A stretch of DNA of 8,669 nucleotides from the NCBI GenBank assembly GCA_946479535.1, contig CAMLGP010000080.1, forward strand, positions 1-8,669, given 5' to 3'. The translations under genes and the position numbers were made by a program. Positions 2,374 to 8,669 of this stretch are shown here, in pieces; the stretch's first letter is position 1, and every line of letters starts with the position of its first letter. The notes beneath the pieces are model-generated. The model saw nothing but the letters and a program-made list of their open reading frames with translations. It was not told where the DNA came from and did no database searches. The stretch is from an uncultured Bacteroidota bacterium (GTDB lineage Bacteria > Bacteroidota > Bacteroidia > Chitinophagales > Chitinophagaceae).

Positions 2374-2436
2374 TATTCAATACATAAAAAAGGCACTCGT
2401 TTTGCTATAAAGCGGCATTACTCTTAAATTGTGGCC

Positions 2437-3687
2437 ATGAACAATGCCATCAACGAATTGGTAAGGTCTATTGTTAAAAAGAATTCCCTCGCCGAATGTA
2501 GCGTGAGTGAATTGCAACGGCTCACAACGCAGTATCCTTATTTTGGGCCTGTGCAATTCCTGCTGGCCAGGAAACTGAAGGAAGAGAACTCTTCCCAATA
2601 TTCAAAACAATCCCAGAAAGCAATACTGTACTTCCAGGATGATCTCTGGTTTGATTATGTAATCAGCAGCAGGCTCAATGAAGTTGTTTTCTCAAAGAAT
2701 AACGACCAGGCAGAAGTTATTCCCATTCAGCCTTTGGTGGCAACGGAAGAAACAACAGGGACGGCAATTGAGAATAGTAATGAAGTTGAAGAGCCTCCAA
2801 GGCAAGACAGCTTTATTGCTGAAGAAAAATTACCTGAACCCGTACTTGAGCGTGTAGAAGAAGTAATTTCCCCTGTTGAAGAAAAATTATCTGAACCCGT
2901 ATTTGAGCGTGTAGACCAGGTAATTGCTCCTGTTGAAGAAATACAAACTGAAGTAGCCAGTGACCCTTTAATTGAGAATATTGAACCGCTGGAAGATAAA
3001 GAGGTGCAAGCCATTGAAGTTATCCAGGAACCTGCAGAGAACACAGAGACAGAAGTTGAGTTATCTGAAAGGATAGAAGAAAAGACAGAACCTGCCCCAC
3101 CGGTTGTACACAACAAAGCTCCGGTTGAATATGATGATGGAATTAGCTATTCATCACAACCTGAAATAAACCCTGTTGAAAGTGTGCATGAGCAACCCGT
3201 TGAACCCATGGGTTCGGAGGATCTGAATGAAGCAGAAGAAATCACACCAGTAAATACTGATCTTCCTCCCCTTCCCGGATTAAAGATTGAACCCTTTAAT
3301 CCTGAAACTGCCAAACTCAGTTTTGAACCCTATCATACGGTTGATTATTTCGCTTCCCTGGGAATAAAATTCAGGGAGGAAGAGAAGCCCAAAGATCGGT
3401 TTGGGCAGCAGCTCAGGAGTTTCACTGAATGGTTGAAGACCCTGAAAAAGGTACCGGAAACTGCGGGTGGAGCACCCACTGCAAGCGGGCCAGAGGATAA
3501 AAAAGTAACCCAGATGGCAACGCATTCCCTGACTGGAAAAGAAGTGGTCACAGAGGCAATGGCGCAAGTTTGGGAAAAACAGGGAAATCATGAAAAAGCC
3601 ATTGAAACCTACCGCAAATTAAGTTTGCTCAATCCCTCCAAAAGCGCTTATTTTGCTGCCAAAATTGACCATTTAAAGCAGTTGTGA
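2437..3687 (+). CDS. Acidic protein with C-terminal TPR, function unknown
   Basis: A 416-aa protein with no signal peptide or membrane segment, so probably cytoplasmic. Three parts are visible. The folded-looking N-terminus (1-88) includes LQRLTTQYPYFGPVQFLLARKL, split by hydrophobic and aromatic residues. A long Glu/Pro/Val-rich, probably disordered stretch covers about 92-285. The C-terminal region has YHTVDYFASLGIKF (299-312), an amphipathic RFGQQLRSFTEWLK (321-334) and one TPR-like motif, VTEAMAQVWEKQGNHEKAIE (371-390), continuing to YFAAKI. Similar proteins sit next to secG or lptE in other Bacteroidota, as I recall, but I know no assigned function. The TPR suggests a protein-protein contact role. 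The start is ATG at 2437; GTG at 2431 is an in-frame alternative. Residues 129-166 are two 19-aa tandem copies. The stop is one base from the secG start, so the two are probably co-transcribed. Confidence 0.8.
   Translation: MNNAINELVRSIVKKNSLAECSVSELQRLTTQYPYFGPVQFLLARKLKEENSSQYSKQSQKAILYFQDDLWFDYVISSRLNEVVFSKNNDQAEVIPIQPLVATEETTGTAIENSNEVEEPPRQDSFIAEEKLPEPVLERVEEVISPVEEKLSEPVFERVDQVIAPVEEIQTEVASDPLIENIEPLEDKEVQAIEVIQEPAENTETEVELSERIEEKTEPAPPVVHNKAPVEYDDGISYSSQPEINPVESVHEQPVEPMGSEDLNEAEEITPVNTDLPPLPGLKIEPFNPETAKLSFEPYHTVDYFASLGIKFREEEKPKDRFGQQLRSFTEWLKTLKKVPETAGGAPTASGPEDKKVTQMATHSLTGKEVVTEAMAQVWEKQGNHEKAIETYRKLSLLNPSKSAYFAAKIDHLKQL
2821..2934 (+). repeat. Two tandem 57-bp copies inside the acidic TPR gene
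   Basis: Bases 2821-2877 and 2878-2934 are direct copies matching at 50 of 57 positions by my alignment, with no gap. They encode two 19-residue units, EEKLPEPVLERVEEVISPV and EEKLSEPVFERVDQVIAPV. A third unit starts (EEIQTEV) but does not continue. Because 57 is a multiple of three, a change in copy number would lengthen or shorten the linker without breaking the frame. Five amino-acid positions differ between the two copies. Confidence 0.9.
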
Positions 3688-6195: not shown

Positions 6196-6798
6196 ATGAA
6201 AAAGACTATGTTTTTGGCATTGCCGGCTCTGGCGCTTGTCTTTCTTACGATAGCCCCTGCTGACCCTCTTCCCATTGGTGCAACTTTACCAAATCCAGAA
6301 GTAAAAATGAAGGATATCTCCGGTAAGGAAGTGTCTTTCAAAGATGCAACAAAGAAGAATGGTTTGCTGGTAATGTTCAGCTGCAATACCTGCCCTATTG
6401 TAAGGGGATATAAGGCAAGAACAGTTGCAGCAGCAAAACATGCAATGGAAAGTGAAATTGGTGTGATACTGCTGAATCCAAATGAAGCAACCCGTACCGA
6501 TGGTGATTCATTTGATGATATGAAGGCTTATGCCAAACAATCAGGCTATACTTTCAATTATGTGATTGATAATAATTCAAAAATGGCAGACGTATTTGGA
6601 GCCAATCGTACGCCGGAATGCTTCCTGTTTGACAAGAATGGCAAACTGGTTTACCATGGTGCTATTGACAACAACGCAGGAGATGCAGATGGCGTTACCA
6701 AACAATACCTGATCAAGGCAATTGATGAGGTGAAAACCGGCTTACCAGTTTCTGTAAAAGAATCCAGGTCTGTTGGTTGCGGTATTAAAAGAGTTTAA
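6196..6798 (+). CDS. Exported thioredoxin-fold protein, AhpC/TSA redoxin type
   Basis: A 200-aa protein with a signal peptide (about 1-22: MKKTMFLALPALALVFLTIA) and a single thioredoxin-like domain. It carries FSCNTCP with Cys63 and Cys66 as the redox pair, a cis-Pro motif TPECFLFD (Pro140), and KNGKLVYHGAIDNN (147-160). It ends SRSVGCGIKRV, where Cys195 sits in the conserved C-terminal GC-x-IK signature seen in this redoxin subgroup. The probable location is the periplasm, or membrane-associated if the signal is not cleaved. It may act in thiol-disulfide exchange or peroxide reduction; the substrate is unknown. It lies 39 nt after yihY, so it may be read from mltG-yihY, from the tentative promoter at 6156-6172, or both. 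A strong terminator follows. Confidence 0.87.
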   Translation: MKKTMFLALPALALVFLTIAPADPLPIGATLPNPEVKMKDISGKEVSFKDATKKNGLLVMFSCNTCPIVRGYKARTVAAAKHAMESEIGVILLNPNEATRTDGDSFDDMKAYAKQSGYTFNYVIDNNSKMADVFGANRTPECFLFDKNGKLVYHGAIDNNAGDADGVTKQYLIKAIDEVKTGLPVSVKESRSVGCGIKRV

Positions 6799-6856
6799 AT
6801 AAAAGAGTCTAAATTAAAGAGCATTATTAAAAAATAATTGACCTGTTCATGTTATC

Positions 6857-7216: not shown

Positions 7217-7747
7217 TTAATCAAGTATAGCCATGATTTCTTTCTTCAGGGTTTCCCGGGAAAGAGCGTCTTCGTAAAATTTACGGTACCCTGTTTTATT
7301 ATTGATGAAGAGAGTGGCTGGTAATACACCAGACCATTGGGGATCAACTTTTGGGCAGAAGTAATCTGCATCAGTCTCATTCAGCCAGAGAATGGGAGCG
7401 GTAAACCTGCGACTGGCGGCAAAGGTTCTTATCTTTTGAGGGTAATAGGATTTCAGGTCCAGGCTAACCAGCACTAATTGTACGCCTTTTGCTTTTTGTT
7501 TCTTCACTTCCTCCTGGAAATAAGGGATCTCAGCAACACAGGGCTTGCAATAGGTTGCCCAGAAATTTATTACCATTGGCGTTTTGCTTTCCGAAATGGT
7601 TTTTTCCAGGTCAGTGATCTTAATTGATCTTATTTGCAACGCGGATTTTATCTCCTGTGCGGCCAGACATTGTACTGCGAATAATGCCATGACCACCATC
7701 ATTGACCTGAACATTGACATAGTCTCAAGACTAGCTATTTTCTTCAT
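7217..7747 (-). CDS. Exported TlpA/ResA-like thioredoxin
   Basis: A 176-aa thioredoxin-fold protein. A signal peptide is visible (hydrophobic core MMVVMALFAVQCLAA, 16-30, with likely cleavage before Gln31). The TlpA-type active site is NFWATYCKPCVAEIP (61-75, Cys67 and Cys70). The cis-Pro motif is VLPATLFI (Pro143). One further Cys (131) is present. The likely role is periplasmic thiol-disulfide exchange, as a reductant for envelope proteins or cytochrome maturation; the partner is unknown. The start is uncertain. ATG at 7747 lies inside the trmH 3' end (17-nt overlap) and is preceded by GGAG five bases upstream, a good Shine-Dalgarno rarely seen here. ATGs at codons 10 and 12 would give a more typical, shorter signal peptide. 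It is probably translated from the trmH transcript. Confidence 0.87.
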   Translation of the reverse strand: MKKIASLETMSMFRSMMVVMALFAVQCLAAQEIKSALQIRSIKITDLEKTISESKTPMVINFWATYCKPCVAEIPYFQEEVKKQKAKGVQLVLVSLDLKSYYPQKIRTFAASRRFTAPILWLNETDADYFCPKVDPQWSGVLPATLFINNKTGYRKFYEDALSRETLKKEIMAILD

Positions 7748-8324
7748 AAATACTCCATTCTTTCAAAAGATTCTGTTTTATGACGCTGTCCATTCCCGCC
7801 TGGTTGTAATGACCGGCCTTATACTTTTGCCGGTAGGCTTCGTATAAGGTAACGGCACAGGCTACACTTATATTTAAAGAACGAATGATCCCTGCCTGGG
7901 GAATGATGAAATTACCATCTGCCAGTGCCCGGATCTCCTCACTTACCCCACTATGTTCATTCCCAAACACCAGTGCTATCGATTTTGTAAGATCCAGTTC
8001 ATACAAACCTACGGCATCACTGCTTAGATGGGTTGTTAAAATGGTGGAATAGCGTTTCCGCAAAGAATTGAAGCATTCTTCTGCATTCTCAAATTGATGA
8101 ACGGTGAGCCATTTGGCGGCACTGGAAGAACTGCGGGTTCCCCATTTCTTGTGTCGGGGGATCTTCGTATTTAAAATATAGATATCCTGGACTCCTACCG
8201 CATCACAGGTACGCATTACCGCTGAAATATTATGGGGGTCAAAAACGTTTTCCAGTACAACGGTTATATCGTTTTGTCGTTTGGAAAGAACACGCAATAA
8301 TTTTTCTTTTCGTTCCGGTGTCAT
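7731..8324 (-). CDS. trmH: tRNA (guanosine-18-2'-O)-methyltransferase TrmH (SpoU family)
   Basis: SAM-dependent enzyme methylating the ribose 2'-OH of G18 in the tRNA D-loop; cytoplasmic. The 197-aa SPOUT protein shows the three SpoU motifs: NVFDPHNISAVMRTCDAVGV (26-45, with Asn32 and the probable catalytic Arg38), IALVFGNEHSGVSEE (116-130) and FIIPQAGIIRSLNISVACAV (139-158, Ser149-Leu150-Asn151). The start TPERKEKLLRVLSKRQNDITVVLENV and the end of motif 3 (TLYEAYRQ) resemble TrmH of E. coli as I remember it. The length is near the short TrmH type and lacks the long C-terminal extension of the E. coli protein. Other SpoU enzymes such as TrmL and RlmB are less likely. The only sequence upstream in the window is the repeat array, and the promoter is not obvious. 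Confidence 0.88.
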   Translation of the reverse strand: MTPERKEKLLRVLSKRQNDITVVLENVFDPHNISAVMRTCDAVGVQDIYILNTKIPRHKKWGTRSSSSAAKWLTVHQFENAEECFNSLRKRYSTILTTHLSSDAVGLYELDLTKSIALVFGNEHSGVSEEIRALADGNFIIPQAGIIRSLNISVACAVTLYEAYRQKYKAGHYNQAGMDSVIKQNLLKEWSIYEENS

Positions 8325-8438
8325 GAATTTTTATTAGTACGAATTTAAGTATATTTATAGGTGCTGTATCCAGCTCCTGAGAAAAAGTAAATACATATTC
8401 TACCGGGAGCTTCATCTGGCTAAAAAAAATAAGAAACT

Positions 8439-8501
8439 ATCAGATGAACCGAAGGCCATGTAACCTAAAATAATAAATAAATGGCCTGAGCACCATCTGG
8501 C
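8439..8501. repeat. Hairpin unit 1 (R2-loop-R1, 63 nt)
   Basis: Outer stem CAGATG (8441-8446) pairs with CATCTG (8494-8499). Inner stem AGGCCAT (8453-8459) pairs with ATGGCCT (8481-8487). The two are separated by a 6x6 internal loop. The terminal loop (8460-8480) is 21 nt, AT-rich, and unlike the loops of the other two units, while both stems are intact. Confidence 0.75.
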
Positions 8502-8524
8502 TGAAATAAATAAAACATAAAATA

Positions 8525-8587
8525 ATTAGATAAACCGAAGGCCATATATTAATATCTAATAAACAGATGGCCTGAGCTCCATCTGGC
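8525..8587. repeat. Hairpin unit 2 (R2-loop-R1, 63 nt, weakened outer stem)
   Basis: The inner stem AGGCCAT/ATGGCCT (8539-8545 and 8567-8573) is perfect. The outer left arm is TAGATA (8527-8532) instead of CAGATG, two transitions that leave a T-G wobble, four pairs and one mismatch against CATCTG (8580-8585). The 21-nt loop (8546-8566) is identical to that of unit 3. Confidence 0.75.
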
Positions 8588-8606
8588 CTAAATAAAATAT
8601 AAAATA

Positions 8607-8669
8607 ATCAGATGAACCGAAGGCCATATATTAATATCTAATAAACAGATGGCCTGAGCTCCATCTGGC
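8607..8669. repeat. Hairpin unit 3 (R2-loop-R1, 63 nt) at the window edge
   Basis: Both stems are perfect: CAGATG (8609-8614) with CATCTG (8662-8667), and AGGCCAT (8621-8627) with ATGGCCT (8649-8655). The last 55 bases (8615-8669) are identical to 8533-8587 in unit 2. The window ends on the last base of this R1 element, so further copies may follow. Confidence 0.75.

What the first reader, a model, noticed from the sequence alone, without database searches (positions are those of the whole stretch)
8400..8669. Mosaic array of one 21-bp element in strictly alternating orientation
Seven elements alternate R1, R2, R1, R2, R1, R2, R1. R2 reads as a plain direct repeat until it is reverse-complemented, when it matches R1 at 15 of 21 positions: ATGGCCT and CATCTG are shared and the central six bases differ by type. 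Two types facing each other with AT-rich spacers is the architecture of BIMEs (REP mosaics), but this element sequence is not one I recognise. It could be a new REP-like family, possibly moved by a RAYT-type transposase encoded elsewhere.
Basis: partly seen in the sequence, partly recalled or inferred. Interest (0 to 1): 0.72.

Follow-up and report, generated by a model that had tools for sequence, protein, structure and literature searches.

The report
Mobile hairpin inserted into start codons
The repeat at the end of this window belongs to a family of short mobile DNA hairpins scattered through Bacteroidota, which insert at the sequence ATGAA, mostly exactly at a gene's start codon, and leave a fresh start codon behind, so that the gene keeps its protein but gains a new leader.

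Summary
The array is real: 6 matches to ATGGCCT-N6-CATCTG, shuffle mean 0.34; the 15-of-21 match holds. R1 and R2 are the two arms of one hairpin. The array is tandem copies of a dispersed element running from one ATGAA to the next (82-86 bp here): ATGA..[variable stem]..CCAT-CTGGCC-(A-rich linker)-CAG|ATGAA. In the nearest relative held (a Segetibacter MAG) the syntenic copies end on the start codon of an aldehyde-dehydrogenase gene. A covariance model found the element in 20 of 29 genomes reached through relatives' loci and 17 of 296 across the phylum. Outside training genomes, 98 of 131 solo or terminal copies lie on the start of an ORF of at least 50 aa; the target sequence alone predicts 44%. 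One Longitalea locus gives the empty site: a 99-bp insertion exactly at the start codon, ATGAA once before, twice after. CATCTG pairs and covaries with CAGATG at the new start. None of 30 Y1-transposase (RAYT-type) loci is flanked by a convincing copy. The moving enzyme is unknown, and an effect on translation is inferred. The window's own genome is not held.

The parts
8400..8443 (+). Partial, decayed 5'-most unit: right arm GAGCTTCATCTGGC plus A-rich linker ending in CAG
   Evidence: Model R1 hit 8406-8452, 55.6 bits (this sequence was in the training set); decayed R1 with 6 mismatches
8444..8529 (+). Unit 1 (86 nt): ATGAACCGAAGGCCAT - AT-rich loop - ATGGCCTGAGCACCATCTGGC - A-rich linker - TAG
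   Evidence: Sequence; R1 hit 8487-8538, 47.5 bits (in training set)
8530..8611 (+). Unit 2 (82 nt): begins with a mutated ATG (ATAAACC) and ends in CAG
   Evidence: Sequence; R1 hit 8573-8620, 68.2 bits (in training set); repeat copies 96% identical
8612..8669 (+). Unit 3, cut off by the end of the window: ATGAACCGAAGGCCAT ... ATGGCCTGAGCTCCATCTGGC
   Evidence: Sequence
8441..8459 (-).
8481..8501 (+).
8527..8545 (-). R2, 5' arm of hairpin 2, with 2 mismatches to the motif
8567..8587 (+). R1, 3' arm of hairpin 2
8609..8627 (-). R2, 5' arm of hairpin 3
8649..8669 (+). R1, 3' arm of hairpin 3, at the window end
7731..8324 (-). SpoU-family RNA methyltransferase gene transcribed away from the array; anchor for synteny, not part of the element
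   Evidence: PF00588, E 4.7e-35; 92% identical in L001

Best explanation
It is a non-autonomous mobile hairpin element of Bacteroidota, roughly 80-100 bp from one ATGAA to the next, that inserts at ATGAA, above all at start codons. SHOWN: copies are dispersed and, in some genomes, near-identical; their limits are sharp (ATGAA...CAG|ATGAA); at one locus a filled/empty comparison shows a 99-bp insertion exactly at a start codon, with ATGAA once before and twice after; at most loci examined the regenerated ATGAA opens the reading frame; CATCTG near the 3' side is complementary to CAGATG at the new start and covaries with it; tandem copies occur in register with the ATG. INFERRED: insertion is tolerated there because the element brings an A-rich ribosome-binding region and restores the ATG. 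ATG is the target because the element carries CAT, which can pair with the ATG on either flank (ATGA..TTCCAT on the left, CATCTG..CAGATG on the right), comparable to the guide/cleavage-site pairing of single-stranded IS200/IS605-type transposition. In mRNA the same CAT can cover the start codon, so a gene that gains the element probably gains a start-masking leader. The window array is this element in tandem, amplified locally in front of an off-window aldehyde-dehydrogenase gene.
For: (a) Dispersal: R1 hits at E<=0.5 in 58 of 119 relatives, up to 51 in one genome, where only 51 candidates were scored; exact core TTCCATCTGRCC 41 times in G156 against 0 for the reversed control; 20 of 29 genomes at E<=0.01. 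(b) Sharp limits: in G156 12 of 17 units with a recognised 5' end are 99-100 nt; with the L. arenae query, 30 of 33 listed dispersed copies begin at 737-739 and 25 of 33 end at 842-848, the two ATGAA being at 739-743 and 838-842. (c) Empty site: L. luteola (G071) and G515 align to both flanks with a 5-base overlap, ATGAA. Of 10 genomes at that locus R1 finds the element in L. arenae, a different copy at the same start codon in G514, a weak linker remnant in G518, and none in the other 7. (d) Lineage specificity: 1 of 19 fetched aldehyde-dehydrogenase loci and 1 of 30 fetched HisS-like loci have it. (e) Start codons: 98 of 131 terminal or solo copies outside training genomes, against 321 of 728 non-coding ATGAA sites. 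(f) 3' junction is ATGAA in 141 of 145, against 40% of 748 background ORFs. (g) Helix CATCTG/CAGATG: 96.4% and 98.6% of cells paired, covariation 0.146 and 0.167 against at most 0.043 and 0.021 for slid partners; 101 of 145 exactly complementary, 19 of them with a non-consensus pair such as CATGTG/CACATG or CATCCG/CGGATG.
Against: Only one locus supplies empty sites. The R1 model was trained on 16 hand-trimmed copies, mostly from start codons, so start-codon and ATGAA counts are biased upwards, and the copies fetched were mainly the best-scoring. A general test of the upstream hairpin by swapping upstream sequences was weak: own duplex in the best 5% for 22% of 89, median rank 0.31, G156 median 0.62; only the position-wise test (offsets 5, 6, 10 of 18) supports it. 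Of 6 short pieces folded, 2 of them truncated, z-scores ran from -2.85 to +0.32. No transposase was found. The G514 copy begins ATGGC, so only ATG is common to both ends there. Start-codon share varies by genome, 12 of 12 in G217 but 9 of 21 in G413 and 5 of 10 in G363, so part of the pattern is just target sequence.
Confidence: 0.8

Rival explanations
1. A cis-regulatory RNA family of 5' leaders: CAUCUG switches between the upstream AUGA arm and the start codon and so controls translation; inherited with its gene, mobility secondary.
For: Covariation at the start-codon helix and at three offsets of the upstream hairpin; fixed orientation and near-fixed distance to the start; start-codon share above the target-sequence expectation; four gene pairs at 69-98% protein identity in different genomes both carry a copy (L319/L360, L331/L361, L367/L509, L359/L505).
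Against: Empty site and lineage-specific presence; near-identical copies within G156; copies at ATGAA that opens no ORF; downstream genes without a common theme (L34, malic enzyme, 6PGD, glutamine synthetase, AcrB, RmlD, aldehyde dehydrogenase); no Rfam family at those loci; ordinary folding energies.
Confidence: 0.3
2. A REP/BIME family moved by a RAYT (TnpA-REP) transposase.
For: Small imperfect palindromes, high copy number, alternating arms; Y1 genes present in 11 of 12 genomes tested; PMC6006769 (section read) reports Bacteroidetes TnpA-REP subclass 2.6 flanked by atypical structures that recur in the genome.
Against: On 30 Y1 loci R1 gives only two matches, E 0.47 and 0.85, and a core-pattern scan one poor match; several Y1 genes are flanked by other, GC-rich palindromes. 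Copies duplicate ATGAA and lie on start codons.
Confidence: 0.1
3. Only a local minisatellite: tandem duplication of the leader of one gene, with chance symmetry.
For: Units 2 and 3 of the window are 96% identical; the nearest relative has only two shorter units at the same place.
Against: The same unit is dispersed in relatives, including 12 solo or terminal copies examined in G001 itself, and other genomes have in-register arrays too (G413, spacing 92-93).
Confidence: 0.05
4. A MITE of a DDE transposase with a 5-bp target duplication ATGAA.
For: ATGAA once in the empty and twice in the filled allele; small, non-coding, multicopy.
Against: Inside the ATGAA repeats the ends show no obvious terminal inverted repeat in the sequences printed; the palindrome sits at one side of the element and includes the flanking ATG.
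Confidence: 0.15

Closest known systems
REP / BIME with RAYT (TnpA-REP), including the Bacteroidetes subclasses 2.4 and 2.6 (PMC6006769) and GTAG-/CGTC-tagged palindromes (PMC3733652)
   Same: Short imperfect palindromes with variable parts, multicopy within a genome, sporadic between genomes, tandem/alternating arrangements
   Different: No RAYT association found; ends are ATGAA; most copies on start codons in one orientation; includes an A-rich linker that forms the new ribosome-binding region
IS200/IS605 family ends (IS608, ISDra2)
   Same: Hairpin near one end, insertion beside a short fixed sequence, and base pairing between an internal guide and the cleavage/target sequence (guide principle seen as a passage of PMC6006769). 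Read on the bottom strand the element is TTCAT|CTG-linker-CAGATG-hairpin-TTCAT; the similarity to TTAC and TTGAT targets is recalled
   Different: No transposase, a single hairpin, target equals start codon; single-strand mechanism untested
Small bacterial MITE-like repeats (RUP, Correia, ERIC, Rickettsia palindromic elements; all recalled)
   Same: About 100 bp, non-coding, insert near or in genes
   Different: None recalled as inserting at start codons and regenerating them
Start-codon-masking 5' leaders
   Same: Anti-start sequence complementary to the start region, with covariation
   Different: Here the leader is acquired by insertion, at unrelated genes

Membership tests
REP/BIME (RAYT-mobilised) | Dispersed multicopy small palindrome | tested here: met
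REP/BIME (RAYT-mobilised) | Copies flank a Y1 (RAYT) transposase gene | tested here: not met
   30 Y1 loci from 11 genomes: R1 only E 0.47 and 0.85; one poor core match. G001 shows no Y1 hit but is a draft MAG; the window genome was not testable
REP/BIME (RAYT-mobilised) | GTAG or CGTC tag at one end | tested here: not met
   By eye on printed copies: CGTC occurs in G156 and some Longitalea copies, but not in the window units or in the G010 and G363 consensus
REP/BIME (RAYT-mobilised) | Extragenic, no fixed relation to start codons | tested here: not met
   98 of 131 copies on the start of an ORF of at least 50 aa
MITE of a DDE transposase | Target-site duplication | tested here: inconclusive
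   ATGAA once/twice in empty/filled alleles at one locus; equally explained by a target plus an identical element end
MITE of a DDE transposase | Terminal inverted repeats shared with an autonomous element | tested here: inconclusive
   No obvious inverted repeat inside the ATGAA copies by eye; no autonomous copy sought beyond Y1 genes
IS200/IS605-like | Insertion at a fixed short sequence | tested here: met
   ATGAA at 141 of 145 3' junctions (biased model)
IS200/IS605-like | Subterminal hairpin and internal guide complementary to the junction | tested here: met
   the swap test of the hairpin was weak
IS200/IS605-like | Y1 transposase, single-stranded intermediate | not testable with these tools
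   No linked Y1 gene found; the intermediate needs the bench
Described structured RNA family (Rfam 15) | Match to a curated family | tested here: not met
   Window tail: one hit at E 0.18, below the gathering score; 13 loci: only a tRNA and a TPP riboswitch at L215, neither on the element; 20 loci: none at E<=0.1

The most novel reading that the evidence does not exclude
A transposable element whose target is the start codon itself because its guide reads CAT: single-stranded DNA of the element pairs CAT(CTG) with ATG on either flank, inserts there, regenerates the start codon with its own ribosome-binding region, and thereby places each gene it enters under a start-codon-masking leader - a mobile 5' leader that can move translational control from gene to gene and amplify in tandem.
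Probability: 0.35. Interest if true: 0.9.

Novelty: new variant of a known kind. Interest (0 to 1): 0.76.

Why it matters
Most small bacterial repeats are read as scattered between genes. An element aimed at ATGAA that rebuilds the start codon would be a way for a mobile element to live inside essential genes without breaking them, and a way for genomes to swap 5' leaders. It gives a direct source of leader diversity in a phylum that relies little on Shine-Dalgarno signals (recalled), and the filled/empty pair makes both the insertion mechanism and the expression effect testable in non-pathogenic Longitalea or Niastella species.

Tried and rejected
BIME of two REP types: rejected, since the two types are arms of one hairpin with a conserved A.C mismatch (67 of 86 copies).

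RAYT mobilisation: no linked Y1 gene.

Known RNA family: searches give no match on the element.

No match to one L. arenae copy in plasmids or phages at E<=0.01.

Simple pattern CCATCTGGC-N12-36-CAGATG in 99 genomes: 19 with a match, but most listed matches had non-A-rich spacers and look like chance, so it was replaced by a covariance model.

The loose core pattern with 2 mismatches in G001 gave 152 matches against 81 for the reversed control, too unspecific to use.

Global arm-swap test of the upstream hairpin: weak, see evidence against.

Integron attC was considered because of the variable terminal stem; not pursued, since the AAC/GTT boxes are not constant among copies and cassette genes are absent.

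A functional uORF was considered: G413 units encode a 24-aa peptide, but window and other units do not share it.

Literature: listings (open PMC papers only) showed no description of a start-codon-targeting repeat; PMC3733652 was seen as one passage, PMC6006769 as passages and sections 23 and 25 only.

Full report
OBSERVATION. The tail of the window holds the described alternation and is also an 82-bp tandem repeat. It lies upstream of a SpoU-family methyltransferase gene transcribed the other way. The window's genome is not held. Homologues of that methyltransferase led to 80 loci in genome contigs; the closest, L001, is a Segetibacter MAG at 92% identity.

SYNTENY. In L001 the same intergenic region holds two shorter units, and the second ends exactly on the start codon of a divergent gene whose product is an aldehyde dehydrogenase (PF00171). 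Read that way, the window array points into the same gene, off the window's end; this is by synteny only.

DISPERSAL. Searching 190-350 bases of the tail in G001 (the genome of L001) and in 196 relatives gave short hits elsewhere, many in the stretch GCTCCATCTGGCC - A-rich - CAGATG; in the strongest ones read by eye the ATG is a start codon. Sixteen such stretches, three of them from the window, were aligned and made into a 48-position model R1 with one 6-bp helix. R1 matched in 58 of 119 relatives at E<=0.5: G156 51 (only 51 candidates were scored), G008 21, G010 20, G001 17. It matched 20 of 29 genomes reached through L001-L080 loci at E<=0.01, among them Niastella caeni 28, Longitalea arenae 12, L. 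luteola 9, Terrimonas sp. NS-102 8 and a Sediminibacterium MAG 8 (a thirtieth was not held), and 17 of 296 genomes drawn across the phylum at E<=0.001.

ANATOMY. I fetched 80 regions and later 60 more, mostly the best-scoring copies of selected genomes. R1 gave 89 hits in 82 sources (the 80 regions, L225 and the window) and 75 hits in the other 60. The picture: ATG A nnn, a stem that differs between loci but is similar within some genomes, n'n'n' C CAT CTG(G/A)CC, an A-rich linker of about 22 nt, CAG, then ATGAA. In G156, conservation starts at ATGAAACG and stops after ATGAAA; 12 of 17 units with a recognised 5' end are 99-100 nt. In 86 copies with a 5' box chosen without regard to pairing, offsets 5, 6 and 10 of the arms pair more often than in any of 500 shuffles, and offset 3 is an A.C mismatch in 67. 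A cruder arm-swap test was weak, which I count against the strength of the upstream-stem claim.

START-CODON HELIX. CATCTG is complementary to CAGATG at the junction. In both hit sets the helix is 96.4% and 98.6% paired, with a covariation score of 0.146 and 0.167 against at most 0.043 and 0.021 when the partner is slid. Among 145 terminal or solo copies, 101 are exactly complementary, 19 of them with non-consensus pairs: CATGTG/CACATG 9, CATCCG/CGGATG 6, CATTTG/CAAATG 2, CATCAG/CTGATG 1, CATATG/CATATG 1. These alignments were fitted to R1 and lean towards its structure.

POSITION. In the first set 68 of 88 hits with a start-like triplet open an ORF of at least 60 aa. Merging both sets and dropping 18 inner array units and the window, 110 of 145 open an ORF of at least 50 aa; without the training genomes G001, G051 and G022, 98 of 131. 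In the 80 syntenic loci non-coding ATGAA sites are 321 at predicted starts and 407 elsewhere, so 44% is expected; binomial p about 1e-12. Genomes differ: L. arenae 12 of 12, G010 13 of 14, G156 13 of 20, G413 9 of 21, G363 5 of 10. The 3' junction is ATGAA in 141 of 145, against 40% of 748 background ORFs. Model bias favours both numbers. Downstream genes have no common theme (HisS, SusD and PIG-L names are recalled from sequence, not from a call).

INSERTION. Using an L. arenae copy as query in the 10 genomes that the tool counts in its genus, which include N. caeni, L. luteola aligns to query 1-743 and 838-1646 with a 5-base overlap, and G515 does the same. The empty allele reads ..AACCATTGTATAACCTAT|ATGAAG; the filled one ..AACCATTGTATAACCGTT|ATGAA[..]CAG|ATGAAAC; unit 99 bp. 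G514 has a different copy at the same start codon, G518 a weak linker remnant, and the other 7 genomes, G071 and G515 among them, no R1 match there. The same call lists 33 dispersed copies; 30 begin at 737-739 and 25 end at 842-848, so the limits agree with the empty site. Element presence is lineage-specific: 1 of 19 fetched aldehyde-dehydrogenase loci and 1 of 30 fetched HisS-like loci. On the other side, four gene pairs at 69-98% protein identity carry a copy in both genomes, so some copies persist or recur.

ARRAYS. In-register arrays also occur in G413, spacing 92-93, and two units occur in L001. The window array is therefore one case of a general tendency; its last two units are 96% identical and recent.

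ENZYME. Y1 (PF01797) matches occur in 11 of 12 genomes tested, 33 in all. On the 30 loci fetched R1 gave two weak matches and a core scan one. Several are flanked by GC-rich palindromes of another kind. No other enzyme was sought.

RNA. The whole tail folds better than shuffles on both strands (z -3.68 and -3.34); 6 shorter pieces were mixed, z -2.85 to +0.32, two of them cut. Rfam has no family here.

VERDICT. A mobile, non-autonomous hairpin element aimed at ATGAA and mostly found at start codons: well supported (0.8). Single-stranded, CAT-guided insertion: plausible, untested (0.35). Translational masking: supported by pairing alone.

Noticed in passing
L328, L329, L330, L363, L364, L366, L355, L359 (near 801): A second, GC-rich hairpin (such as CCCTGCCCGAC...TCATTCAGGCGGG) sits inside the element close to CATCTG, apparently a nested insertion of another repeat family.
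   Followed up: no
L381, L383, L384, L392, L394 (Y1 loci): Y1 transposase genes of these Bacteroidota are flanked by short GC-rich palindromes, probably their own REPs.
   Followed up: partly
L474-L492 (G413): Many element units encode a near-constant 24-aa peptide starting MKSSMTKIVTHWDDY; not shared by other genomes seen here.
   Followed up: no
L370, L371 (G001): The element is open in frame with the downstream gene from its 5' ATG, so it could add an N-terminal extension; in L370 the junction codon is CTG instead of ATG.
   Followed up: no
window 2820-2941: 57-bp tandem repeat, 2.1 copies, inside the ORF at 2431-3687.
   Followed up: no
window 6786-6821: 14-bp tandem repeat TAAAAGAGTCTAAA, 2.6 copies, at the end of the AhpC/TSA-family gene.
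   Followed up: no
window 8360-8377: Inverted repeat GGTGCTGTATCCAGCTCC between the methyltransferase gene and the array, also present in L001.
   Followed up: no
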